DNA of 10,304 bases from JAFGIT01 sp016929465 [NCBI: Candidatus Coatesbacteria bacterium] (GTDB taxonomy: Bacteria; B130-G9): positions 1 through 10,304 of the forward strand of contig JAFGIT010000323.1 in the NCBI GenBank assembly GCA_016929465.1, given 5' to 3'. Made by a program: the position numbers and the translations under genes. Below, piece after piece: positions 228 to 10,304 of the stretch. Position 1 is the stretch's first letter; the number at the start of each line of letters is the position of its first letter. Under the pieces are notes generated by a model. That model was not told the origin of the DNA and did no database searches. It saw nothing but the letters and a program-made list of their open reading frames with translations.

Positions 228-1475
228 CTACTTCGGTGGCTCGAGGACCACTCTGAAGCAGTCAAATGGGGATGTAAGGCACGTATGCCTCGCCCACATC
301 ATGCAGGCCATTACTTCATTCGGAGGTCCGCCGCGCATCACATGATATGGGAAGTACTCGTTTACTGTTATGCCAGGAGGAGCATCGGGAGGCCCTTGGG
401 GATTCACTATGCCATCCGGATAATTCTCCAAGCACCACTCATAGTATGTCTGGCCCCAAACCACGCTCATGTCGATGCCGAGGTCGAACCAGTCACTGCA
501 CATCTCGGTGGAGTTCCCGCTGACCTCATAGAGCCCAAAACCGTTAGGCGGATAGGAGCGTACCGGCACCGGAAAGGGCTCACAGCTGTAGCCGTCGGTC
601 ACGCAGATATTGCCGAAGTCACATGATCTATCGTTGCCCCAGGGATAGTCGTCGAGCGAGAATGCCCTCGCGGCATACTCCCACTGAGCCTCCGTCGGCA
701 ATTTTCATCCCTTCCAGAGCGAGTACGCCTCAGCCCCTGCGAAGTGGACATCTGCCGGGTAGTCGTCACAGCCTGGCTCGGCAGCAAAGACGCCGTCCAC
801 GAATTTTATGGGCATAGTCAGATAGTGGCCCCATTTCACTCCGTTTGGCCCGAAAATCCAGGCCTCATCGAGTGTCGCTCCGGCTGCATTCAGGAATTGG
901 GAGAAATCCGAGACAGTTGTCTCGGTCTCAGCCATGAAGAACGAGCTCAGGCAGACCTTGTGCGGGACCTCTCGCTCACGAGGGTTGGGCGTAAATCCGG
1001 TCCCCATCATGAACCGGCCAGACGGGATGGCTACGAATCCCTCTGGCGCGACGGAGAAGGAAGTCTCGTCCTCAGAATAGACCAGCTCACCGACGTTCGA
1101 TGGCGTAATCCAGATCTTGAGCGTAGTGGCCTTATTAAGAACGCTGGGTGGTTCACCGGCCTTGATTGTGGTCAGCCGATATATAGTGGGCTCTGTTAGC
1201 TGCGGCATCAAAAAACCCGCAAATAGAGGGACAGCCTCCGTTGTCCATCCCGATGGCCCGAGATACATCGTGGCTCCATCTGTGGTCCCGCTGAGATAGA
1301 TGTCCACATCGAACTCGTGCGTCCGGTTGGCCGCTGTGGCCCAGAATTCCACATCGTCGCCAATCGAGAATACATCGTCCAGAACCGTGACACTCACCAC
1401 TGGCCCGGCCTGGCAATCGCTAATCAGAATCCCGCAGATAACTACAACCAATATTGCGCATCTCAGCCGGTGCAT
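228..1475 (-). pseudogene. Secreted Ig-like + FGE-sulfatase-like protein, interrupted by in-frame TGA
   Basis: This is a 415-codon reading frame broken by one TGA at codon 257 (bases 705-707). I chose the ATG at 1473-1475 because AGGAGG lies six bases upstream; an in-frame ATG at 1500-1502 lies upstream of that site and would spoil the signal peptide. Residues 1-23 form a signal peptide ending in CQA. Residues about 24-142 are the Ig-like domain shared by all exported proteins here (DVDIYLSG near 56-63). From about 146 comes an FGE-sulfatase/SUMF1-like domain: VAIPSGRFMMG, then after the stop LPTEAQWEYAAR (259-270), GLYEVSGN (315-321), RGG (381-383), and a terminal FRVVL. Sequence on both sides of the TGA is in the same frame and matches the family continuously, so a single base substitution or read error is likeliest. 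The RGG motif is followed by PP instead of the usual S/C-W, suggesting decay or divergence. Its architecture matches the partial gene at 9752. Confidence 0.8.
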
Positions 1476-1481
1476 GGGCAG

Positions 1482-1487
1482 CCTCCT
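1482..1487 (-). promoter_or_regulatory. Shine-Dalgarno site fixing the start at 1475
   Basis: The minus strand reads AGGAGG here, six bases before the ATG at 1475-1473. It is the strongest ribosome binding site in the window and shows that the longer frame starting at 1502 is not the true start. Confidence 0.8.
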
Positions 1488-1544
1488 ATAAGCTCTACTC
1501 ATTCCCGATTACCGATAAATTTCAGCAATCAATATCTAAAGCGA

Positions 1545-1572
1545 ATCCTACCTTATATGGAACGCCAGTCAA
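1545..1572 (-). promoter_or_regulatory. Candidate sigma-70-type promoter for the minus-strand gene
   Basis: On the minus strand, TTGACT (1572-1567) is separated by 16 bases from TAGGAT (1550-1545). Transcription from about 1538 would give a leader of roughly 60 bases before the ATG at 1475. It is a consensus match only. Confidence 0.35.
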
Positions 1573-1690
1573 GCCTATTGCTGAGCACTAAATCAAAGAA
1601 GATTGACATAAATATATGTTTTATAGATACGCGCAGAACAACCCACTTCTCAGGAGCATCTCAATTCGGAGTAGCTGTAATAGAATTCAC

Positions 1691-1719
1691 TTGCACCACC
1701 GCACACAATTTCGTAGAAT
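1691..1719 (+). promoter_or_regulatory. Weak candidate promoter for the DUF6345-like gene
   Basis: TTGCAC (1691-1696) and TAGAAT (1714-1719) are 17 bases apart, in front of the gene starting at 1868. The -10 match is good and the -35 match is poor. The implied leader is about 140 bases. Confidence 0.22.
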
Positions 1720-1867
1720 TATTCTTACCACAGACAACTAAGAGGCGGACGGGGCGGTTGCAGGTCTTGGGGACGATCCGCACTGCTTCCCCTGCTGATT
1801 CTACATATATCTTTCGATTGAGACTGCTCATAATCCGCTATTCTTCGAGCAAAGAAGGGAGAGATGT

Positions 1868-4123
1868 ATGGGGCGACTAAACCTCTCTATAATCGGAATC
1901 TGCCTTATCCTGCTGTGCGTGCTGGCCACCGTTATCGAGACCACCGCGGGCGACAAGGACGTCGGCGTCGAGTGGATCAATAATTTCGCCGGAACGGTGA
2001 ATGACCGCAGCCACTGGGACGAATCCGCGGAAGGGCTTTACAACAATATGACGGCAGAAGGCTGGATCGGCAGGTTCTGCTTCAGCAATTCTGCTGCATG
2101 GGAATCGGACTTCACGACCAACAACGGTTCCTATATCGACGCGGTCGATTTGTCGTTGATCGGGACACATGGGAGCTACGGCTACGACAGCGGGTGGGGC
2201 AAGGACCTGAGCCGCGTCATGTTCAGCACCGGCTCATCCGATTCCTATATGTATTCGAGCGAGTGTTACCAGCGATGGGGAAATGGAGACGCCGAGTGGA
2301 TTGCGCTCGACTGCTGCAGCGTGCTTCGCAATGGCAATGATAGCTACAAATACTGGTCGAGAACCATGGACGGTCTGCACCTTCTCTGCGGCTTCAAGAA
2401 CACGATGTACGTCAATGCACCGGGTGACGGCAAGAAGTGGGGCGATTACATGATCGATGACGGCTGGTTCGATTCTGCCGAGACCGTCACCCAGGCCTGG
2501 TTCCACGCAGCCGATTACGTGCAGCCCAACGGTGTTGACGCGAGAGTGCTCGCTGAGGAATCCGAGAATTATGATGACTACTGCTGGGGCGAGGGCTCTG
2601 TGACAGACGATCCCGTCTATGACAGCGATTTCTACGTTTGGACCCACTCAACGGGCTGTCCCCCGCCGCGGCTTGTCGATACCGATATCGATAAGATGAT
2701 GGTCTTTAAGTTCGCCGGCGAGAAGGTGGACCAGCAGGTGGCGACCGATATGGCCAAGAAGTTCGGACTGAACGAAGAGACCCAACTCGGTAAGGACGGC
2801 TTCTATAGGTCTAATTCCGAGGGCAAGAAATTCAGGGTGCACGAGAACGGCGGCTGGTTCTATGGAGACATGAACCAGCTCTGGGTATTTCCAAAGGACG
2901 CGGTGGAGCTGCCGAGCGAGGATGCAGCGATTGCAGCGGCCGAGGACTTTTTCGAGAAGGCCGGCTTGATGCCTGCCGATGCTGGCGACCCGGATGTTCA
3001 CACCGAGATAGTCTCCCTGGCGGACCGTGAGAAGGAAGACGAGGACATCATCCTGCAGGAATTCGAAGTGATGCGCTGCGTGTTCTTCCCCAGAGAGCTG
3101 AGCTACGGCGGGCAAACTTTCACAGTCATGGGCCCCGGTGCGAAGCTAAGGGCCTATATCGGCCATAACGGCCAGCTGATTGGTGCTCACGGTGGATGGC
3201 GGGCGGTCGAGGAATCCGAAGAGGTTGAAATCTTCCCGGAGCAGCTCGCTCGCACAATCGTCAAGGACTTCGGGAGCAAAGTGGCCCTTCTTGGCCCGCC
3301 GATGTTCAGCACCTTCGAACTACAGGATCTCACGCTCTGCTACTTCGAGTACCAGACCGACCGTTCCGGCGAATCTCTGATTCCCGCCTATCACATGCGC
3401 GGCCAATTCTACCAGGATGGCGAGGCGTTCGACGAGGGCGATATGTATATACCCGCATCCGTCAAGTTCATGCCGCCTGTCCCGAAGATCGTGAGGCCGC
3501 AGGACGGCGCGAGCTTCAGAAATGGCCAGCAGATTGTCCTGGCGGGAGAGCTGAATTTCGGCTCGGGTGACGTGAAGCTCGAATGGTGGTCGGATAAGGA
3601 TGGATATCTGGGAAGCGGCATAACGGTCAGCACGATTCTGACGTCGAACTCGAAGCAGGGCGAGCCGATGCCGCAGGCGATCAAGCTCGTCGCGACCGAC
3701 AGCCAGGGCAGGTCAGCATCGGACCAGGTCACCGTCATGGTGACTCGCCCTTGGATCAGGATCGAACTGAATGAATTCAGCTACCAGGATGGCGATGACC
3801 TCACGCTGCTGCTTTCCGCAGGCAGCCCAGGGGCGGAGATCGACGTCGATCTCTACATGCTCATGATCGGCCCCGGGGGACAGCTGGCGTTCTTCCCGCA
3901 GTGGAACAGCCGCTTTGCGCCGCTCCCATTCAAGCTGTCGACCGACTTCATGCTGCGCGACCTCAAGATACTCTCGGATACACTCCCGATGACCGCGCCA
4001 CCCATCGGCAGGGCTGGCGATTACGCCTTCTGGGCGGTCATAGTCAACCAGCACACGGGCGACGTCTTCGGGACGGCCAGCGTCGCGAAATTCGAATACG
4101 GATTGAGCGAAGGCGAGGATTAA
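1868..4123 (+). CDS. Secreted DUF6345-like protein, putative clan-CD-type cysteine peptidase, with C-terminal Ig-like domain
   Basis: The 751-aa protein starts at the ATG at 1868, six bases after GGGAG (1857-1861); the out-of-frame ATG at 1864 is rejected. Residues 1-27 are a signal peptide ending in TTA. Residues about 32-225 (VGVEWINNF, GLYNNM, WIGRF, DLSLIGTHGS, WIALDCCSVL, DGLHLLCGF, AWFHAA) resemble DUF6345 proteins as I recall them. The HG at 101-102 and the cysteine after LD (C150; C149 adjacent) sit where clan CD peptidases (caspases, gingipains) keep their His and Cys, so protease activity is plausible but inferred. Residues about 276-375 resemble the region that follows in that family (LPSEDAAIAAAEDFFEKAGL). 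Residues about 540-626 are an Ig/cadherin-like domain (PQDGASFRNGQQIVLAG). Residues 628-745 are the Ig-like domain shared with the neighbouring exported proteins. There is no C-terminal membrane anchor or known sorting motif. The gene stands alone, followed by a terminator. Confidence 0.85.
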   Translation: MGRLNLSIIGICLILLCVLATVIETTAGDKDVGVEWINNFAGTVNDRSHWDESAEGLYNNMTAEGWIGRFCFSNSAAWESDFTTNNGSYIDAVDLSLIGTHGSYGYDSGWGKDLSRVMFSTGSSDSYMYSSECYQRWGNGDAEWIALDCCSVLRNGNDSYKYWSRTMDGLHLLCGFKNTMYVNAPGDGKKWGDYMIDDGWFDSAETVTQAWFHAADYVQPNGVDARVLAEESENYDDYCWGEGSVTDDPVYDSDFYVWTHSTGCPPPRLVDTDIDKMMVFKFAGEKVDQQVATDMAKKFGLNEETQLGKDGFYRSNSEGKKFRVHENGGWFYGDMNQLWVFPKDAVELPSEDAAIAAAEDFFEKAGLMPADAGDPDVHTEIVSLADREKEDEDIILQEFEVMRCVFFPRELSYGGQTFTVMGPGAKLRAYIGHNGQLIGAHGGWRAVEESEEVEIFPEQLARTIVKDFGSKVALLGPPMFSTFELQDLTLCYFEYQTDRSGESLIPAYHMRGQFYQDGEAFDEGDMYIPASVKFMPPVPKIVRPQDGASFRNGQQIVLAGELNFGSGDVKLEWWSDKDGYLGSGITVSTILTSNSKQGEPMPQAIKLVATDSQGRSASDQVTVMVTRPWIRIELNEFSYQDGDDLTLLLSAGSPGAEIDVDLYMLMIGPGGQLAFFPQWNSRFAPLPFKLSTDFMLRDLKILSDTLPMTAPPIGRAGDYAFWAVIVNQHTGDVFGTASVAKFEYGLSEGED

Positions 4124-4137
4124 TTCAGATAGGGTGG

Positions 4138-4161
4138 GGGGGCCATTGCCCCCTTATTGTT
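4138..4161 (+). terminator. Intrinsic terminator after the DUF6345-like gene
   Basis: GGGGGC (4138-4143) and GCCCCC (4148-4153) form a 6-bp GC stem around a CATT loop, followed by the T-rich TTATTGTT. It begins 15 bases after the stop codon. Confidence 0.65.
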
Positions 4162-4164
4162 CCT

Positions 4165-4189
4165 ATAGGGCCTTCGGTCTAAGGCCTAT
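4165..4189. terminator. Second hairpin between convergent genes
   Basis: ATAGGGCCTT (4165-4174) pairs with AAGGCCTAT (4181-4189) across a 6-base loop, with one bulged G. There is no long T tract on either strand. It may back up the first terminator or block read-through from both sides. Confidence 0.4.
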
Positions 4190-4192
4190 TCA

Positions 4193-4224
4193 GGGGTGGA
4201 CTCGCCCTCGTGCGGGTTCACCCC
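4193..4224 (-). terminator. Possible hairpin terminator of the cobalamin adenosyltransferase gene
   Basis: GGGGTG (4193-4198) and CACCCC (4219-4224) bracket a GC-rich interior just past the end of the minus-strand gene. No clear T run follows on the minus strand, so termination function is uncertain. Confidence 0.3.
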
Positions 4225-4227
4225 TTC

Positions 4228-4749
4228 TCACTTCTCGATTCCGACCCTGGCCTCGACGCCTTCACGGTGGTAGTGCTTGACCTCGACCATCTCGGTCACG
4301 AGGTCCGCGAGCTCAATCAGCCTGTGATCCGCATTCCGACCCGTTACGACAACCTCTACGTACGCGGGCCTCGCCGCGATGGTTGAGATGAGCTCATCGA
4401 CCGAGAAGAGGCCCAGGTGAACCGCGACGTTCGCTTCGTCTAGTACCACCAGCTGGTACCGTCCGGAAGCGATGGCCTCCCTTGCCTCCTTGAGGCCCTC
4501 CCTTGCGGCCGCGAAGTCAGCGTCGGAGGGCTTGCCTATAATGAACTTCTCACTCCCGAAGTGTCGCAGTTCGATCGAGTCCGAGAATCGCCTGAGAGAA
4601 GCCACCTCGCTCGTCGGGGAGCCTTTGAGAAATTGGGCGATGAATACCCGAAAGCCAGCCCCCGCGGCCCTTATCGCAAGCCCAATGGCGGCGGTCGTCT
4701 TGCCCTTGCCGTTACCCGTATAAACCTGTATTCGTCCTTTCATCGGCAT
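4228..4749 (-). CDS. cobO: Corrinoid (cob(I)alamin) ATP adenosyltransferase, CobO/BtuR/CobA type
   Basis: This cytoplasmic enzyme transfers the adenosyl group of ATP to the cobalt of cob(I)yrinic acid a,c-diamide or cob(I)alamin, in adenosylcobalamin synthesis or salvage. The 173-aa length fits the family (about 170-200). The N terminus carries the family P-loop GNGKGKTTAAIG (residues 13-24). FIAQFLKG, ELRHFG, a Walker-B-like LVVLDEANVA and VVTGRNA follow in the usual order, and the end (GVEARVGIEK) is close to the normal family terminus. The ATG at 4749-4747 has AGGAG six bases upstream (4760-4756). A good promoter lies at 4785-4813. No other corrinoid gene is in the window, so it is an orphan between exported-protein genes, convergent with the gene to its left. 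Function is confident; the organism's route to B12 cannot be judged from here. Confidence 0.95.
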   Translation of the reverse strand: MPMKGRIQVYTGNGKGKTTAAIGLAIRAAGAGFRVFIAQFLKGSPTSEVASLRRFSDSIELRHFGSEKFIIGKPSDADFAAAREGLKEAREAIASGRYQLVVLDEANVAVHLGLFSVDELISTIAARPAYVEVVVTGRNADHRLIELADLVTEMVEVKHYHREGVEARVGIEK

Positions 4750-4784
4750 CTCCGTCTCCTACAAGTTGGCCCAATCGATACGAG

Positions 4785-4813
4785 ATCATAGCCGCGCCGA
4801 GGCGGCATAGCAA
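4785..4813 (-). promoter_or_regulatory. Candidate sigma-70-type promoter for cobO
   Basis: On the minus strand TTGCTA (4813-4808) is followed by a 17-base spacer and TATGAT (4790-4785), giving a leader of about 30 bases. The spacer contains a GC-rich dyad (GCCGC...GCGGC, 4791-4806) that could be an operator. The short leader leaves no room for a cobalamin riboswitch. Confidence 0.45.
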
Positions 4814-4843
4814 AGTGGAAATCCAGGGATCGTGGCCAGCGCA

Positions 4844-4860
4844 GGCTGGGCTTGCCAGCC
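4844..4860. repeat. GGCTGG/CCAGCC hairpin
   Basis: GGCTGG (4844-4849) and CCAGCC (4855-4860) flank GCTTG; outer bases GC (4841-4842) and GC (4862-4863) extend the stem around one mismatch. It resembles a REP-type intergenic hairpin. It lies upstream of both divergent genes, so termination is unlikely to be its purpose. Confidence 0.4.
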
Positions 4861-4884
4861 CGCTAATTGACCGGAGGTTCATTC

Positions 4885-5046
4885 ATGAAGCACCAGGGAT
4901 CACGAAGGGCCCTTTGGGAGTGCGTGCGAGCTCTCGCCGCTTTGGTTTGCGGTGACCCGTCGCCGCATCTAATCAATCGCCTCCCTGCCTCATCCGTGAT
5001 GCACAGGGCATGGTCCGCATGGCTCAAGCGGTGGGTCAATTTTTGA
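4885..5046 (+). CDS. Doubtful small ORF, 53 aa, unknown
   Basis: An ATG at 4885 preceded by GGAGG (4873-4877, seven-base spacing) opens a 53-codon frame that starts MKHQGSRRALWECVRALAAL and ends at a TGA inside the dyad at 5030-5052. It has no recognised domain, signal peptide or membrane segment. The good ribosome binding site is the only positive evidence. It may be a chance frame, or the 5' piece of a gene cut by an inserted element, since its stop lies within the dyad. Confidence 0.2.
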   Translation: MKHQGSRRALWECVRALAALVCGDPSPHLINRLPASSVMHRAWSAWLKRWVNF

Positions 5047-5052
5047 CCCGCC
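5030..5052. repeat. Dyad GGGTCAA-TTT-TTGACCC, copy 1
   Basis: GGGTCAA (5033-5039) and TTGACCC (5043-5049) are perfect inverted arms around TTT; outer bases extend the stem to about 10 bp with one G-T pair. A related dyad lies about 60 bases downstream. Paired sites like these can be transposase-binding ends, but no transposase is present. Confidence 0.45.
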
Positions 5053-5113
5053 TGACGAGTTCTTGCTGATAAAGGGCAATTAGGTAGATTTGGGGGGCGC
5101 TATCCGGACGCGG

Positions 5114-5133
5114 GTGGATCAATTCTGACCCAC
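5114..5133. repeat. Related dyad GTGGATCA-ATTC-TGACCCAC, copy 2
   Basis: The arms GTGGATCA (5114-5121) and TGACCCAC (5126-5133) pair at seven of eight positions. The sequence resembles the dyad at 5030-5052 (GTGGGTCAATTTTTGACCCG). Confidence 0.45.
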
Positions 5134-5234
5134 TCAGACACGAATAGAACTTGGGGCGATGTCGGACCACGACCAGCGGCCACTCAGCCAAACAGATGTC
5201 TTCACATCACAATTGGAGGGGGGAAGACGGACTT

Positions 5235-5250
5235 TGGCACGAATACTGCT
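5235..5250 (+). promoter_or_regulatory. Sigma-54 (-24/-12) promoter for the beta-helix gene pair
   Basis: TGGCACG at 5235-5241, then CTGCT at 5246-5250, matches the RpoN consensus TGGCACG-N4-TTGCW with one mismatch (C for T at 5246). GG and GC have the canonical spacing. Transcription would start near 5261, about 56 bases before the ATG at 5317. The TATATAAA just downstream (5251-5258) lacks a -35 partner at a usable distance, which favours the sigma-54 reading. If real, an ATP-dependent enhancer-binding activator controls the exported beta-helix proteins. Confidence 0.55.
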
Positions 5251-5316
5251 TATATAAAAGGCGTAAGAGCACACGATTCGATTGAGCCGCAATTCAAAAC
5301 GGGAAGGGCGAGACGC

Positions 5317-6942
5317 ATGAAGAAGACACAACTGACACTGATTATCCTGCTGCTGGCGGCCACGATCAGCGCTACCGATTATTATGTCGATGCGAAGAGT
5401 GGCAACGACGCCAATTCCGGGCTCGTCTCGGGCGATGCGTGGGCCACTCTGTCACACGCAATATCGACCTTGAATGTCGATCCAGATCTTGACCCCATCG
5501 TCCTTTTAGCTCCCGGCGGATATACCTTTACTCAAGGGGACTACCTACCGATTATCCGCCGCTTGACGATACTGGGTTCAGGGGAATGGGCCACCGAGAT
5601 TGAGTACGACAACAGGAGCCACTCGCTGGTCGCCGTTTTGGGGGCGGATGTATTGATCCAGAATGTCGTTTTTCGGCCCTTTGAAGGCCAAAACGGGAAT
5701 GGGGCGGAGCCCATCGTTGTCCACGAATCGAGACTTGCTCTGTCCAACTGCCGCTTTCTCGGGCAAGCAGGCATGATCTCGGCTGCCGAGGGTATTCTGC
5801 GCCTCGATTGCTGCGACTTCGATGTAGCCGAGGATGGCGCCGGTGGTGTAGGATTTTCCGTGAATCAAGCTCGATTCTCGGACTGCCAGTTCAGCGGAGG
5901 GTGGTTTTGCCTGATCGCCGGCTCTTCCGATGTGACAATTCTCGAGCGTTGCCAAATGAACGACATTGCGACGGACAGCTTTTGGAGTGGGGAAGGGGTA
6001 TTTATGGCTGGCAATGTCGAACTGCGCGACTGCGTGTTCCACGGTTGGAATTTTAGAGAGCTGGCGGGATTGGCCTTTCTTAGAGGGGGCACCCTCAGGA
6101 TCGTCAATTGCCTGATGGCCGCCAGTGTTTCGACTGGCCAATACGGATTTCTCTTCTGCGCCGAAAACACGAGCAGCTTCTCGATGTCGAACTGCACTCT
6201 CGTCCTCAATGAGTTTAGGGAATTCGCGAGTCCGTGGGGCAGGACTGACTTCCGCTCGACAGATTCTGTCTTGTATTACAATAAAGGCCCCAATCCAGTA
6301 GAGGAACTCCTGAATGATTTCAGCTACTGCTGCCTGGATTTCAATTCACCGGGAGAGGGCAACATAAGCCAGGAGCCTCTATTCGTAGCGGGCCAACTTG
6401 GAGAGGCCTATCTCTCCCAAACCGCTGCTGGACAGGCGCAGAACAGCCCTTGCGTCGATGCTGGCTCGAACCCCGCCGAGTCGCTCGGGATGGATCGATA
6501 CACGACTCGAACGGATGGCGTGCCCGATACGGGCATGGTCGATATCGGTTACCACTATCCCGCATTTCCGGGTGCGGAGATTGAGCTGGAGAAGCGGGAA
6601 TATGCACCTGACGAGACCATGTATGTATATGGCTCGGCCTGGAACTACGCACTCCCGACCGTCGTCGATGTCTATGTCGGTATATGCCGCCCGGATGGTG
6701 AGATCTGGACGATCAGCCCCTCAGGCTGGGCGCCCGCGATCTCACCCTGGCTCGAAGACGTCGAGATGAGCACCGGCTTCGTATTCCCGCTTCAACGGCT
6801 ATTCAAGTTCGATCTTCCCGCTTCAGCCCCTGCAATAGACACCTCCGGCGACTACCTATTTGCGATAGCGCTGCCAATGGCTGGAGATCCCCCCTCTGGT
6901 GGGGACATCCAACTGACACCATTTCACGTGACGGATGATTGA
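5317..6942 (+). CDS. Secreted right-handed beta-helix protein with end-cap module and C-terminal Ig-like domain
   Basis: The 541-aa protein begins at ATG 5317, behind a modest purine-rich site (GGGAAGGGCGAG). Residues 1-19 are a signal peptide ending in ISA. Residues about 20-345 begin DYYVDAKSGNDANSG with DAWATLSHAI, the usual N-terminal cap of DUF1565/pectate-lyase-like parallel beta-helices, then irregular coils (LALSNCRF, LRLDCCDF, VELRDCVF, LRIVNCLM, FSMSNCTL). Residues about 345-415 form a terminal module (PLFVAGQLG, NSPCVDAGS, TTRTDGVPDTGMVDIGYHY) nearly shared with the next protein. Residues 420-538 are the Ig-like domain common to the cluster (VVDVYVGICRPDGEIW). No catalytic residues can be recognised; carbohydrate binding or cleavage is possible but unproven. 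The next gene lies 52 bases downstream on the same strand with no terminator between, so the two probably form an operon. There is no FGE-like domain here. Confidence 0.85.
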   Translation: MKKTQLTLIILLLAATISATDYYVDAKSGNDANSGLVSGDAWATLSHAISTLNVDPDLDPIVLLAPGGYTFTQGDYLPIIRRLTILGSGEWATEIEYDNRSHSLVAVLGADVLIQNVVFRPFEGQNGNGAEPIVVHESRLALSNCRFLGQAGMISAAEGILRLDCCDFDVAEDGAGGVGFSVNQARFSDCQFSGGWFCLIAGSSDVTILERCQMNDIATDSFWSGEGVFMAGNVELRDCVFHGWNFRELAGLAFLRGGTLRIVNCLMAASVSTGQYGFLFCAENTSSFSMSNCTLVLNEFREFASPWGRTDFRSTDSVLYYNKGPNPVEELLNDFSYCCLDFNSPGEGNISQEPLFVAGQLGEAYLSQTAAGQAQNSPCVDAGSNPAESLGMDRYTTRTDGVPDTGMVDIGYHYPAFPGAEIELEKREYAPDETMYVYGSAWNYALPTVVDVYVGICRPDGEIWTISPSGWAPAISPWLEDVEMSTGFVFPLQRLFKFDLPASAPAIDTSGDYLFAIALPMAGDPPSGGDIQLTPFHVTDD

Positions 6943-6956
6943 TGCTAGCAATGATC

Positions 6957-6982
6957 CACGAATGTACACGAAGGACCACGAA
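6957..6982 (+). repeat. Three CACGAA boxes at 10-bp spacing
   Basis: CACGAA occurs at 6957-6962, 6967-6972 and 6977-6982, separated by TGTA and GGAC. Arrays of CCACGAA/CACGAA words are commonly dispersed between genes in several bacterial groups. Here the array fills the gap between two co-directional genes, and its last box runs into AAGGAG (6981-6986), the ribosome binding site of the next gene. Confidence 0.6.
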
Positions 6983-6994
6983 GGAGAGAAAAGG

Positions 6995-9499
6995 ATGAAA
7001 ATGGCTATTTCAATAATCTCGCTGGCGGCCCTTGTCGTCATCCTTTGCAGCATGGCACATGCCGCAACCTACCACGTGAACCAGGACGGGACGGGTGATC
7101 TCACAGTCATCCAGGCCGCGATCGATGCATCAGTCGATGGCGATGAGATCATCGTCCATCCGGGGACATACTATGAGAACATTCAATTCAATGGGCCCAA
7201 TATCGTGCTTCGCTCAACTGATCCTGACGATTGGGATGTGGTCGAAGCGACGGTGATCGACGGCCAGCAGAATGGGCAATCTGTGGTGAGATTCGCCCGG
7301 ACGGAGGACGAGAGATGTCGGCTCTCGGGATTGACACTAACGAACGGTCTATCGACTGAAGGAGGCGGAGGGATATGGGGGGGATGGTATTACCACGAGA
7401 AGACATTTGCCACTATTGAGAACTGCCTGATAACGGGCAACAGCTCGACGATATACGGTGGCGGGCTGGCATACTGCTATGGCACAACTCGAAACTGCAT
7501 AATCACCGGCAATGTTGCCCAAGGAGAGGGAGGTGGACTATGCAGGAGTGGAGCAATCACGAATTGTGAAATAAGCAACAATACCGCTAGTATGGGAGGG
7601 GGATTGTACTATTGTCTCGGAACAGTCTCCAATTGCAGTATAATCAACAATTCTGCAAGAACAGCGGGGGGCGGCTTCTCTAAATGCGTTGGGACAGTGA
7701 TCAACTCTGATATCAGCCACAATTCGGGCGGGTCATCTGGAGGCGGCGTCTATCACGGTAGCGGGACGTTCTTCGACTGCACAATCAGCGGCAACAACGC
7801 CCATTCGGGCGGCGGGTTATGCGCAAATGAGGGAACCTTCATCAATTGCCTCATCCATGATAATTCAGCAGATTCGGATGGGGGAGGAGTGTATTTCGAA
7901 TCGTATTACAGGGCTTGCGGAGAGCAGAATCCGTGCCTATTGGGGTATTACGTTCCTGAGATGATCAATTGCACCGTAAGTAATAATTCCGCCGGCCGTG
8001 ATGGCGGAGGTATATGGTCCAATTGGTGCTTCATCTCCAATAGCGTCATTTGGGGCAACGAGGCATCAGGAGAGGAGCCAACTTACATTCATGACCCCTT
8101 TCATCAAGGGATCGACCATTCCTGCATCGAGCATTGGACGCCTGAGGGCGAGGGCTGCATCTCAACTGACCCTTTCTTCGCGGCTGGACCATTGGGCGAT
8201 TATTATCTCTCTTGCAGGGAAGCTGGACAGGATGAGGACAGCCCTTGCATTGATGCCGGCGCCTCGGAGGCGGGAATGGCCAGAAGGACGACTCGGACGG
8301 ATCACATTCCTGACACCGGCATGATTGACATGGGCTATCGCTATTCGCTGTCCGAGGAGATCGATGTCGAGGTGACCTGTTCACTCAGCGCCGATGAATT
8401 CGCACCAGGCGATGCTCTTCAAGGTTCATTGGGTATTGAAAACCGAGACGGGGATGTTGTCGTGGACCTTTTCACCGGCTTTTTGCTGCCAGACGGCTCA
8501 ATGCTCTCCTACATGTCGTCCAGAGGTTTCATGAATGGCGAGTGGTATTGGTACTCCGACCTAATTCTCCCTTCCGGCTTCTCTGTGGACCCCAGCGTCA
8601 TATTCGAATTGACGCTTCCGGCACATGCCGTACCGGGCAATTACGTCTATCTCGCCGCGATCACGAACGCGCGTATGGGCGGAGCAGGCATTCTTGCGAT
8701 CGATGAGTGGCCATTCCAGATCGTCTCTGGTTCAGGGATTACAATGGTCCCGATTCCCGCCGGGTCCTTTCTAATGGGCTCTCCCGATTACGAGGAAGGA
8801 AGATGGGATGACGAGGGGCGGCAGCGGACGGTGAACATCTCTGCATTTCAGATGTCGGAGACGGAAGTAACGCAGAAGCAGTGGCAAGACGCTATGGGCT
8901 GGAACGACTCCTATTTCAGCAGCGATGACCACCCCGTGGAGCAAGTCACCTGGTATGACTGCGTGAGCTTCTGCAACGAGTTGTCGAATGCTGACGGCTA
9001 TACGAAGTGCTATACGATAGCGAACATCGGCTATGACGGCGACCACATCACATGGGCTGATGTGAAGTGCAGCTTCGAGGCGAATGGCTATCGGCTGCCT
9101 ACTGAGGCGGAGTGGGAATATGCCTGTCGAGCGGGGACTACGACACGGTTCTATACAGCCGACTCGGATTCGGACCTTGATCGCGCGGGTTGGTTTTACG
9201 GCAACTCAGGTTCTACGACGCATTCGGTTGGCGAGAATGAGCCGAATGCTTGGGGGCTCTATGACATGCATGGTAATGTCTGGGAGTGGTGCTGGGATTG
9301 GTATTTGTCTGGATACTATGGCAGTCAGCCTGATCCTGATAGCGATCCCACGGGCCCGAGCAGTGGCTCCTACCGGGTCAGGCGCGGCGGCTGCTGGAAC
9401 TTCAGCCCCCGGTACTGCCGGTCGGCTAGTCGCAGTGGCGACGGGCCGTACTACCGTGGCAGCTACGGAGGCTTTCGCCTCGTGAGGTCAGTGAGATAG
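6995..9499 (+). CDS. Secreted beta-helix + Ig-like + FGE-sulfatase-like multidomain protein
   Basis: The 834-aa product starts at ATG 6995, eight bases after AAGGAG; an upstream in-frame ATG at 6935 would overlap the previous gene and hide the signal peptide. Residues 1-23 are a signal peptide ending AHA. Residues 24-140 are the beta-helix N-cap (YHVNQDGTGDLTVIQAAIDA). Residues 143-359 are eight coils of mostly 23-24 residues with N-C-x-I-x-x-N and GGG motifs. Residues 390-450 are the end-cap module (DSPCIDAG, TTRTD, PDTGMIDMGY). Residues 455-578 are the shared Ig-like domain. Residues 581-834 are a complete FGE/SUMF1-like domain: MVPIPAGSFLMGSP, SETEVTQKQW, RLPTEAEWEYACRAG (700-714), GLYDMHGNVWEW (754-765), RRGGCW (796-801) and GFRLVR. 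C808 matches the second active cysteine of true FGE (human C341), but F803 replaces the first (C336). Classical formylglycine synthesis is therefore doubtful; related domains occur in other enzymes and in non-catalytic binding proteins. Confidence 0.9.
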   Translation: MKMAISIISLAALVVILCSMAHAATYHVNQDGTGDLTVIQAAIDASVDGDEIIVHPGTYYENIQFNGPNIVLRSTDPDDWDVVEATVIDGQQNGQSVVRFARTEDERCRLSGLTLTNGLSTEGGGGIWGGWYYHEKTFATIENCLITGNSSTIYGGGLAYCYGTTRNCIITGNVAQGEGGGLCRSGAITNCEISNNTASMGGGLYYCLGTVSNCSIINNSARTAGGGFSKCVGTVINSDISHNSGGSSGGGVYHGSGTFFDCTISGNNAHSGGGLCANEGTFINCLIHDNSADSDGGGVYFESYYRACGEQNPCLLGYYVPEMINCTVSNNSAGRDGGGIWSNWCFISNSVIWGNEASGEEPTYIHDPFHQGIDHSCIEHWTPEGEGCISTDPFFAAGPLGDYYLSCREAGQDEDSPCIDAGASEAGMARRTTRTDHIPDTGMIDMGYRYSLSEEIDVEVTCSLSADEFAPGDALQGSLGIENRDGDVVVDLFTGFLLPDGSMLSYMSSRGFMNGEWYWYSDLILPSGFSVDPSVIFELTLPAHAVPGNYVYLAAITNARMGGAGILAIDEWPFQIVSGSGITMVPIPAGSFLMGSPDYEEGRWDDEGRQRTVNISAFQMSETEVTQKQWQDAMGWNDSYFSSDDHPVEQVTWYDCVSFCNELSNADGYTKCYTIANIGYDGDHITWADVKCSFEANGYRLPTEAEWEYACRAGTTTRFYTADSDSDLDRAGWFYGNSGSTTHSVGENEPNAWGLYDMHGNVWEWCWDWYLSGYYGSQPDPDSDPTGPSSGSYRVRRGGCWNFSPRYCRSASRSGDGPYYRGSYGGFRLVRSVR
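7421..8071 (+). repeat. Coding repeat: beta-helix coils with Asn-Cys ladder
   Basis: Eight successive coils each begin with NC, NS or DC (residues 143, 167, 190, 213, 237, 261, 284 and 325 of the 6995-9499 product), with a last partial coil at 349. Most are 23 or 24 residues; the coil from 284 has a 17-residue insertion with extra cysteines. Each carries xIxxN followed by GGG-[LFVI]. The DNA copies are well diverged, so this is a structural protein repeat and not recent slippage. Confidence 0.85.
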
Positions 9500-9505
9500 A
9501 TCGCA

Positions 9506-9531
9506 GGGATGGGGGATGGGGGATGGGGGAT
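9506..9531 (+). repeat. GGGGGAT tandem repeat, G-quadruplex-capable
   Basis: Three perfect 7-bp units GGGGGAT (9511-9517, 9518-9524, 9525-9531) follow a partial GGGAT (9506-9510). Four G runs of three or more, separated by AT, satisfy the usual G-quadruplex pattern on the coding strand, beginning seven bases after the TAG stop. Confidence 0.8.
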
Positions 9532-9552
9532 GAAAAAAGGTCAAAAAAGGTT

Positions 9553-9588
9553 AATGGGGTCAATGGGGTCAATGGGGTGAATGAGGTC
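9553..9588 (+). repeat. AATGGGGTC 9-bp tandem repeat, four units
   Basis: The units AATGGGGTC (9553-9561), AATGGGGTC (9562-9570), AATGGGGTG (9571-9579) and AATGAGGTC (9580-9588) lie head to tail, the last two with one change each. It is non-coding on both strands as far as I can judge. Such short arrays vary in copy number between strains. Confidence 0.8.
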
Positions 9589-9751
9589 AAAGGAGCAAGG
9601 AGGGCAAGAGGGGGCCAGTTGGGCTTGAATTAGCGCAATAGAGCTAGCATAGTCGTGTAAAACGATTAACAGGACATCAAGGGTCGGCCGCTGCGATATT
9701 GCGCGATCGCGGGCGACAGACCTGTCATGAACCAAGCTGACGGGGCATACG

Positions 9752-10304
9752 ATGAGAACGATAGCTCTTTGCGCGATTTTGGCCGGCTCTGTTCTGGCGA
9801 CCGGATTGGCCGCTGCCGGCCCGATAATCAGCATCTATACCGACGCATATTTTTATAACTACGGCTACACGATCGAGGTGAGTTTATCTGCACAGAACGA
9901 TGAAGCGGCGATGCCAGTCGATGTTTACGTTGGTATCTTGCTGCCTGATGGCGAGATCTGGTCCACACAATGGGACCGTTGGCGACACCAGATCGAGCCG
10001 TGGGTCCCGAATATCTACGTGCCAGCCTGGTTCGAGATGCCGCGTGCGCCTTACTGGACGTTCGATCTTCCATGCGACGAGCCGCCGATAGAGGATGAAG
10101 GCGATTACGCTTTTGCGGCTCTTTTGACCTATCCCGGCACATTTGACTGGGTCTGCAACGCGAGCCTTGCGCCGTTTTCGTATCAGGCAGTTGGACCTGG
10201 GCCGGAGATCACGATGCTCCCAATTCCGGCGGGATCCTTTCTAATGGGATCTCCCGACGACGAGGAGGGAAGATGGGACAATGAGGTGCCGCAGCGGACT
10301 GTGA
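9752..10304 (+). CDS. Secreted Ig-like + FGE-sulfatase-like protein, 3' end outside window
   Basis: The frame is open from ATG 9752 to the window edge (184 codons, no stop). The start is supported by a signal peptide (residues 1-22, ending AAA) rather than by a strong ribosome binding site; only GACGGGG lies upstream. The mature protein begins GPIISIYTD and continues as the cluster's Ig-like domain (PVDVYVGILLPDGEIW at 55-70, GDYAFAALLTYPGT at 117-130, ending near 146). From residue 152 the FGE-like domain starts ITMLPIPAGSFLMGSP, then EEGRWDNEVPQRTV, where the window ends. The architecture equals that of the broken minus-strand gene at 228-1475, whose mature part also starts GPVVSV. The FGE-like portion is much closer to that of the preceding gene. 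Whether the active-site cysteines are present cannot be seen. A function in extracellular or surface biology is inferred from export only. Confidence 0.85.
   Translation, partial: MRTIALCAILAGSVLATGLAAAGPIISIYTDAYFYNYGYTIEVSLSAQNDEAAMPVDVYVGILLPDGEIWSTQWDRWRHQIEPWVPNIYVPAWFEMPRAPYWTFDLPCDEPPIEDEGDYAFAALLTYPGTFDWVCNASLAPFSYQAVGPGPEITMLPIPAGSFLMGSPDDEEGRWDNEVPQRTV

What the first reader, a model, noticed from the sequence alone, without database searches (positions are those of the whole stretch)
1050..10187. One Ig-like domain reused in all five exported proteins
A domain of about 110-120 residues recurs at about 1050-1403 (minus), 3749-4102, 6574-6930, 8357-8728 and 9818-10187. Conserved points are [VI]-D-[VL]-[YF] at the start of a strand, a PDG or GxG turn, W/G-rich middle, and G-x-Y-x-[FY] late. 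It is placed before FGE-like domains in three proteins and at the C terminus in two. Such consistent reuse in one locus suggests a common role, such as surface attachment, export or assembly into one structure. I cannot name the family; it is CARDB/Ig-like in pattern.
Basis: partly seen in the sequence, partly recalled or inferred. Interest (0 to 1): 0.65.

Follow-up and report, generated by a model that had tools for sequence, protein, structure and literature searches.

The report
Unnamed Ig-like tag on exported proteins
The five neighbouring exported proteins do share one small immunoglobulin-like domain, and it turns out to be an unnamed module used about 150 times across this uncultured bacterium's genome, usually at one end of very different exported proteins, which suggests a general tag for holding or sorting proteins at the cell surface.

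Summary
Five copies of one ~120-residue domain lie at 1041-1406 (minus), 3749-4102, 6571-6939, 8360-8731 and 9818-10192; an HMM built without window copies finds all five (E 9e-45 to 6e-10; best of 1,000 shuffles 0.48). AlphaFold models of two copies (pLDDT 97.2, 90.6) are the same Ig/CARDB/FnIII-like sandwich. In 81 copies no Pfam match is better than E 3e-4, no NCBIfam match better than 0.037. The domain is genome-wide: 147 matches in the own genome, about 100 in each of two related genomes, 12-30 in four genomes of other families. Of 100 complete ORFs 52 end in a copy and 32 copies start by residue 60, on carriers as different as peptidases, beta-helices, propellers and FGE-like domains. 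T9SS SprA was not detected in the 11 domain-bearing genomes, but in 95 of the 386 searched. Best reading: a terminal attachment or sorting module for exported proteins of diderms without detected T9SS, used as SLH, dockerin or T9SS-CTD modules are, but not matching those families. Function is inferred, not shown.

The parts
1041..1406 (-). Ig-like domain copy A, between the signal region and an FGE-like domain (most divergent copy)
228..1502 (-). gene A: signal region, Ig-like domain, FGE-like domain; split by an in-frame TGA at 705-707
3749..4102 (+). Ig-like domain copy B, C-terminal
1868..4123 (+). gene B: signal region, DUF6345 (PF19872), Ig-like domain at the C terminus
6571..6939 (+). 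Ig-like domain copy C, C-terminal
5317..6942 (+). gene C: signal region, probable beta-helix (inferred from the sequence; no Pfam family over cut-off), Ig-like domain at the C terminus
8360..8731 (+). Ig-like domain copy D, between beta-helix and FGE-like domain
6935..9499 (+). gene D: signal region, beta-helix (Chlam_PMP repeat over cut-off, Beta_helix below), Ig-like domain, FGE-like domain
9818..10192 (+). Ig-like domain copy E, directly after the signal region
9752..10303 (+). gene E (runs off the window): signal region, Ig-like domain, start of an FGE-like domain (below Pfam's cut-off)

Best explanation
The domain is a general terminal module for exported proteins in a diderm bacterium. 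Carriers leave the cytoplasm by an N-terminal signal peptide (seen as a hydrophobic segment; cleavage not shown), fold, and probably cross the outer membrane by a type II-like secretin route (machinery seen, route inferred). The Ig-like domain, fixed at one end of the chain, then docks the carrier to a common partner at the cell surface, such as an envelope polysaccharide or a receptor protein, so that peptidases, beta-helices, propellers and FGE/lectin-like domains are all displayed on the surface (inferred). It would be used as SLH or dockerin modules are used elsewhere (their use is recalled).
For: Copy number: 147 matches in the own genome; in a capped run 107, 103 and 98 in three family genomes and 27 in the fourth, 83% complete. 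Placement: of 100 complete ORFs, 52 end in a copy (tail 20 residues or less; one of them, in L041, only because a stop breaks the domain); with tandem neighbours 59 of 113 copies form the C end against 5.5 expected under uniform placement; 32 start by residue 60 against 15.0; 22 are elsewhere, 8 of these starting at 64-107 where the start codon is probably called too early. 90 of the 100 have a hydrophobic N-terminal core, 3 a lipobox-like motif, both by crude rules. Carriers differ widely: FGE, DUF1565/Beta_helix, M28, S8, C25, esterase, VWA, FG-GAP, BNR/Reg_prop propellers, DUF6345. Six of six carriers over 2,000 aa bear two or three tandem copies at the C end. In loci of seven genomes of other families 28 of 33 ORFs have a copy within 19 residues of the C end. 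SLH found in 1 of 11 domain-bearing genomes. Omp85 in 10 of 11 and secretins in 11 of 11; the own genome has a GspD-type secretin near a T2SSM_b protein and two others.
Against: No binding partner, cleavage or localisation was shown. 22 of 113 copies (14 if probable start errors are set aside) are internal, as a spacer would be. 10 of 100 carriers lack a recognisable hydrophobic N terminus. Placement follows the domain tree, so the terminal positions are not independent events. Ig-like folds are common and a shared fold shows no function. Sortases and other anchors than SLH were not searched for.
Confidence: 0.45

Rival explanations
1. Outer-membrane sorting signal: the domain is the address label read by a secretion machine other than T9SS (for example the T2SS), possibly removed afterwards, as the T9SS CTD is.
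For: Extreme C-terminal placement, tails mostly of 3-10 residues, in the own genome, and within 19 residues of the end in 28 of 33 ORFs from other families; Ig-like sandwich as in T9SS CTDs (PMC11285876, start of abstract seen in the listing); GspD-type secretin present.
Against: 40 of 104 full copies are N-terminal, where a C-terminal signal would not be; no dedicated machinery identified.
Confidence: 0.25
2. Ligand-binding accessory module (CBM-like) that aims enzymes and lectin-like domains at environmental polysaccharide rather than at the own cell.
For: Fold neighbours include the biofilm scaffolding protein RbmA and Wzt carbohydrate-binding domains and dextranase N-terminal domains.
Against: Of 79 carriers scanned few match carbohydrate-active families (Pectinesterase in 6, in beta-helix regions); these Z values are shared by many unrelated Ig-like domains.
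Confidence: 0.15
3. Passive cap, spacer or stabiliser, spread by gene duplication without a specific partner.
For: Placement is clustered on the domain tree (13 changes, shuffled mean 38.6), so much of the pattern is inherited; some copies internal.
Against: A spacer should be mostly internal; C-terminal placement recurs in genomes of seven other families.
Confidence: 0.13
4. A T9SS C-terminal sorting domain.
For: Ig-like fold, C-terminal placement, a GxY motif late in the domain (G93, Y95; the resemblance to T9SS CTDs is recalled). One Por_Secre_tail match in G003, over its cut-off.
Against: SprA_N detected in 0 of 11 domain-bearing genomes against 95 of 386 searched (at that prevalence 0 of 11 has a chance of about 0.05 by my arithmetic, more if the four family genomes count as one); none of 81 copies matches Por_Secre_tail or any T9SS model at E 0.1; Por_Secre_tail 0 in G000-G002; many N-terminal copies.
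Confidence: 0.02

Closest known systems
CARDB / FnIII-like Ig sandwiches (CARDB of PF1109, RbmA, AlkC Ig domain)
   Same: Predicted fold: copy E to RbmA Z 10.0, 2.5 A over 101 residues, to CARDB 2kl6 Z 8.2, 2.7 A over 94; copy A to CARDB 3idu Z 10.0, 2.7 A over 99.
   Different: No CARDB or fn3 model among the 14 Pfam families matched at E 0.1 by 81 copies; 8-15% identity to these chains; genome-wide use at chain ends.
DUF4785 central domain (PF20942, PDB 4kh9)
   Same: The only repeated sequence lead: 15 of 81 copies, best E 3.3e-4, and 4kh9 at E 8e-4 over profile positions 2-53.
   Different: The one score shown (16.8 bits) is under Pfam's cut-off of 30; covers less than half of the domain.
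T9SS C-terminal domain
   Same: Ig-like sandwich at the C end of diverse signal-peptide proteins (PMC11285876 and PMC4804311, starts of abstracts seen in listings).
   Different: No SprA detected, no CTD family match, also N-terminal placement.
SLH and dockerin modules (their use is recalled)
   Same: Terminal module at either end of otherwise different exported proteins, in many copies per genome.
   Different: Different fold (recalled); SLH found in 1 of 11 genomes; partner unknown.

Membership tests
Ig/CARDB-like beta-sandwich fold | antiparallel Ig-like sandwich of about 7-9 strands | tested here: met
   Models of copies E and A, pLDDT 97.2 and 90.6, 8 and 9 strands; VIA Z 8-11 to Ig-like chains; Foldseek 3idu E 9e-4 for copy E. 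Copies B, C and D were not modelled
CARDB (Pfam) | match to the Pfam model above the gathering score | tested here: not met
   CARDB is not among the 14 families matched at E 0.1 by 81 copies
DUF4785_2nd (PF20942) | match above the gathering score of 30 bits | tested here: inconclusive
   15 of 81 copies match at E 0.1 or better, best E 3.3e-4; the one copy whose bits are shown scores 16.8; the bits of the other 14 were not shown, though such E-values point to scores under 30
T9SS CTD | sequence match to Por_Secre_tail or NCBIfam T9SS sorting-domain models | tested here: not met
   81 copies scanned, none listed at E 0.1
T9SS CTD | SprA translocon in the same genome | tested here: not met
   0 of 11 domain-bearing genomes, 95 of 386 in the same search; own genome 86% complete
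T9SS CTD | always C-terminal | tested here: not met
   32 of 113 copies start by residue 60, 22 others are not C-terminal
SLH | SLH motif match | tested here: not met
   SLH not among the 14 families matched by 81 domain copies at E 0.1
Surface-attachment module (function) | binds a common envelope partner | not testable with these tools
   needs binding and localisation experiments

The most novel reading that the evidence does not exclude
The domain is the substrate signal of an undescribed outer-membrane sorting pathway, working at either chain end, in several lineages of uncultured bacteria without detected T9SS, so that well over a hundred otherwise different proteins of this genome form one secretome.
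Probability: 0.15. Interest if true: 0.8.

Novelty: new variant of a known kind. Interest (0 to 1): 0.5.

Why it matters
A domain used about 150 times in one 3.2-Mb genome, for which Pfam and NCBIfam gave no convincing match, leaves much of the surface or secreted proteome of a lineage unannotated. Its recurrent terminal placement on different exported proteins gives a concrete, testable handle on how diderms without T9SS sort or hold proteins at the surface, and a profile with which to list those proteins.

Tried and rejected
T9SS CTD: rejected; alone was not informative because no control rang, hence the wider. SLH anchoring: one match in one of 11 genomes. Diversity-generating retroelement acting on the FGE/lectin-like domains: RVT_1 0 matches in G000 and G003, 1 in G001 and 2 in G002, one of these below cut-off, so not supported. 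Lipoprotein anchoring: 3 of 100 with a lipobox-like motif by a crude pattern. Local tandem duplication as the source of the copies: on the tree, B lies far from C and E; C and E do share a 21-row group (support 93, drawn open), but the nearest rows of all three are on other contigs; A and D were not full matches and were not on the tree. T9SS CTD structures were not among the 50 rows shown by VIA-align, which excludes nothing. Paper searches returned nothing; listings showed no title describing this domain; two searches were for the Auka study. The survey scored at most 11 candidates per genome, so 11 of 386 is a lower bound. Foldseek was run on the PDB for copy E only, VIA-align for copies E and A. 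Sequence searches of plasmid, phage and viral collections were not made.

Full report
What was claimed. I checked the sequence, the whole genome and related genomes.

The ORFs give five genes with a hydrophobic N terminus: A (minus, 1502-228), B (1868-4123), C (5317-6942), D (6935-9499) and E (9752 to the window's end). Exact domain ends are 1041-1406 (minus), 3749-4102, 6571-6939, 8360-8731 and 9818-10192. Against 1,000 shuffles per pair the four plus-strand copies are related to each other at z 4.9-23.5; copy A reaches z 2.1-6.5, with 40 shuffles as high in its worst pair. With an HMM of 101 own-genome copies that holds no window copy, all five score E 9e-45 to 6e-10, copy A over only the first two thirds; the best of 1,000 shuffles is 0.48. 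The 101 copies had been found by a search that started from the window copies. Pfam names FGE-sulfatase in A, D and E (in E, cut by the window's edge, below cut-off) and DUF6345 in B; in D the Chlam_PMP repeat is over cut-off and Beta_helix below it; C has nothing over cut-off.

It is a genome-wide family. A five-copy profile finds 147 matches at E 0.1 or better in the own genome of 3.19 Mb, 86% complete, with 150 of 165 candidates scored. In 100 fetched stretches plus the window an iterated profile finds 157 copies in 138 ORFs, some cut by contig ends, with mean pairwise identity 29% among 104 full copies. With the broader profile A2, 11 of 386 genomes match at E 1e-6, seven of them in other families and labelled only 'same domain' by the tool; these hold 30, 28, 15, 12, 1, 1 and 1 copies at E 1e-4. 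The narrower profile had found none in 37 such genomes. The window is the densest stretch fetched: 5 genes, next best 3, 0.03 such windows expected.

It has no name that I could find. In 81 copies the best Pfam match is DUF4785_2nd (15 copies, best E 3.3e-4; Pfam cut-offs are shown only for the first copy, 16.8 bits against 30), then MG2 at 8.8e-4 in one or two copies; the best NCBIfam match is E 0.037. PDB 4kh9, the DUF4785 structure lead, matches at E 8e-4 over the first half.

Fold. AlphaFold with 81 rows gives copy E at pLDDT 97.2, eight strands; with 47 rows copy A at 90.6, nine strands. The alignment rows guide the model, so the second is not a fully independent test; B, C and D were not modelled. 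VIA-align puts copy E near RbmA (Z 10.0, 2.5 A, 101 residues), AlkC (9.6) and CARDB (8.2), and copy A near a dextranase N-terminal domain (11.4, 2.2 A, 103), RbmA (10.6) and CARDB (10.0). Rows within 1 Z are tied, so this shows an Ig-like fold and no function.

Placement. In 100 complete ORFs with 113 copies, 52 ORFs end in a copy (tail 20 residues or less; one, in L041, is an ORF broken by a stop inside the domain). With tandem neighbours 59 copies form the C end against 5.5 expected under uniform placement, 32 start by residue 60 against 15.0 expected, and 22 are elsewhere, 8 of them starting at 64-107. In loci of the seven other-family genomes 28 of 33 ORFs have it within 19 residues of the C end; these are 30 of the better-scoring loci out of 88 copies. 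On a tree of 104 copies, 51 C, 40 N, 9 internal and 4 unassigned, placement needs 13 changes against a shuffled mean of 38.6; only 11 of 101 inner branches are well supported. So placement is inherited in subfamilies but seems to have changed several times. Window copies C and E share a 21-row group, B lies elsewhere, and the nearest rows of all three are on other contigs.

Carriers. 24 ORFs were set aside as FGE carriers by a simple search. Of 32 other N-terminal or internal carriers, 17 match DUF1565, 14 Beta_helix, 12 NosD, 4 FGE after all, 2 peptidase M28, and single ones S8, an esterase, redoxin and FG-GAP families. Of 47 C-terminal carriers, 10 match Reg_prop, 9 Beta_helix, 7 DUF1565, 3 DUF6345, 1 C25 peptidase, 1 VWA and others; 25 of 33 families were shown. 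Of three giants scanned (2,501, 3,381 and 3,822 aa) all carry Big_13, one also propellers and one beta-helices; all end in two or three copies. FGE-like domains give 44 matches, fragments included, in the own genome, 12, 19 and 9 in relatives.

Machinery. SprA_N, the T9SS translocon, is found in 95 of 386 genomes but in none of the 11 that bear the domain; at a prevalence near a quarter this has a chance of about 0.05 (my arithmetic, and four of the 11 are one family), so it suggests that the domain does not need T9SS rather than that the two exclude each other. Omp85 is in 10 of 11, secretins in 11 of 11, SLH in 1 of 11. In the own genome the three secretins are a GspD type with a T2SSM_b protein two genes away, one beside PilO and PilM genes (pilus type), and one near a T2SSE ATPase (Tad-like by inference).

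Reading. A domain that is amplified, almost confined to proteins with a hydrophobic N terminus, mostly fixed at chain ends and indifferent to its carrier is most simply an attachment or sorting module. Because it occurs at either end, attachment to a common surface partner (as with SLH or dockerins, recalled) is preferred to a purely C-terminal export signal. Shown: homology, copy number, placement, predicted fold of two copies, no SprA detected. Inferred: crossing of the outer membrane, the partner, surface location.

Limits.

Noticed in passing
705-707 (minus): An in-frame TGA splits gene A inside its FGE-like domain, with both halves in one frame. Stops of other kinds interrupt a domain copy (C379, TAG) and another FGE (C333, TAA), so damage or sequence error is likelier than recoding.
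   Followed up: partly
1967-2638 (protein B, residues 34-257): DUF6345 has a His after one hydrophobic strand-like stretch (..LIGTHG..) and Cys after another (..WIALDCC..), which recalls clan CD cysteine peptidases (recalled, not tested). No paper in the library holds 'DUF6345'.
   Followed up: no
4228-4749 (minus): A CobO/BtuR corrinoid adenosyltransferase (PF02572, E 4e-61) lies alone among the exported-protein genes.
   Followed up: no
8727-8834 and 10197-10304: 81% DNA repeat of 108 bases, the start of the FGE-like domains of D and E.
   Followed up: no
FGE-like copies of the genome (L032 to L111): Of twelve FGE-like C ends that fit a simple pattern, 11 keep one Cys (CR...) where true formylglycine-generating enzymes have a pair (recalled), so these are probably FGE/lectin-fold domains rather than sulfatase activators.
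   Followed up: partly
L133 (G003:C226:3236-3469): A single Por_Secre_tail match (30.9 bits, over cut-off) in a genome where SprA was not detected; possible contamination.
   Followed up: no
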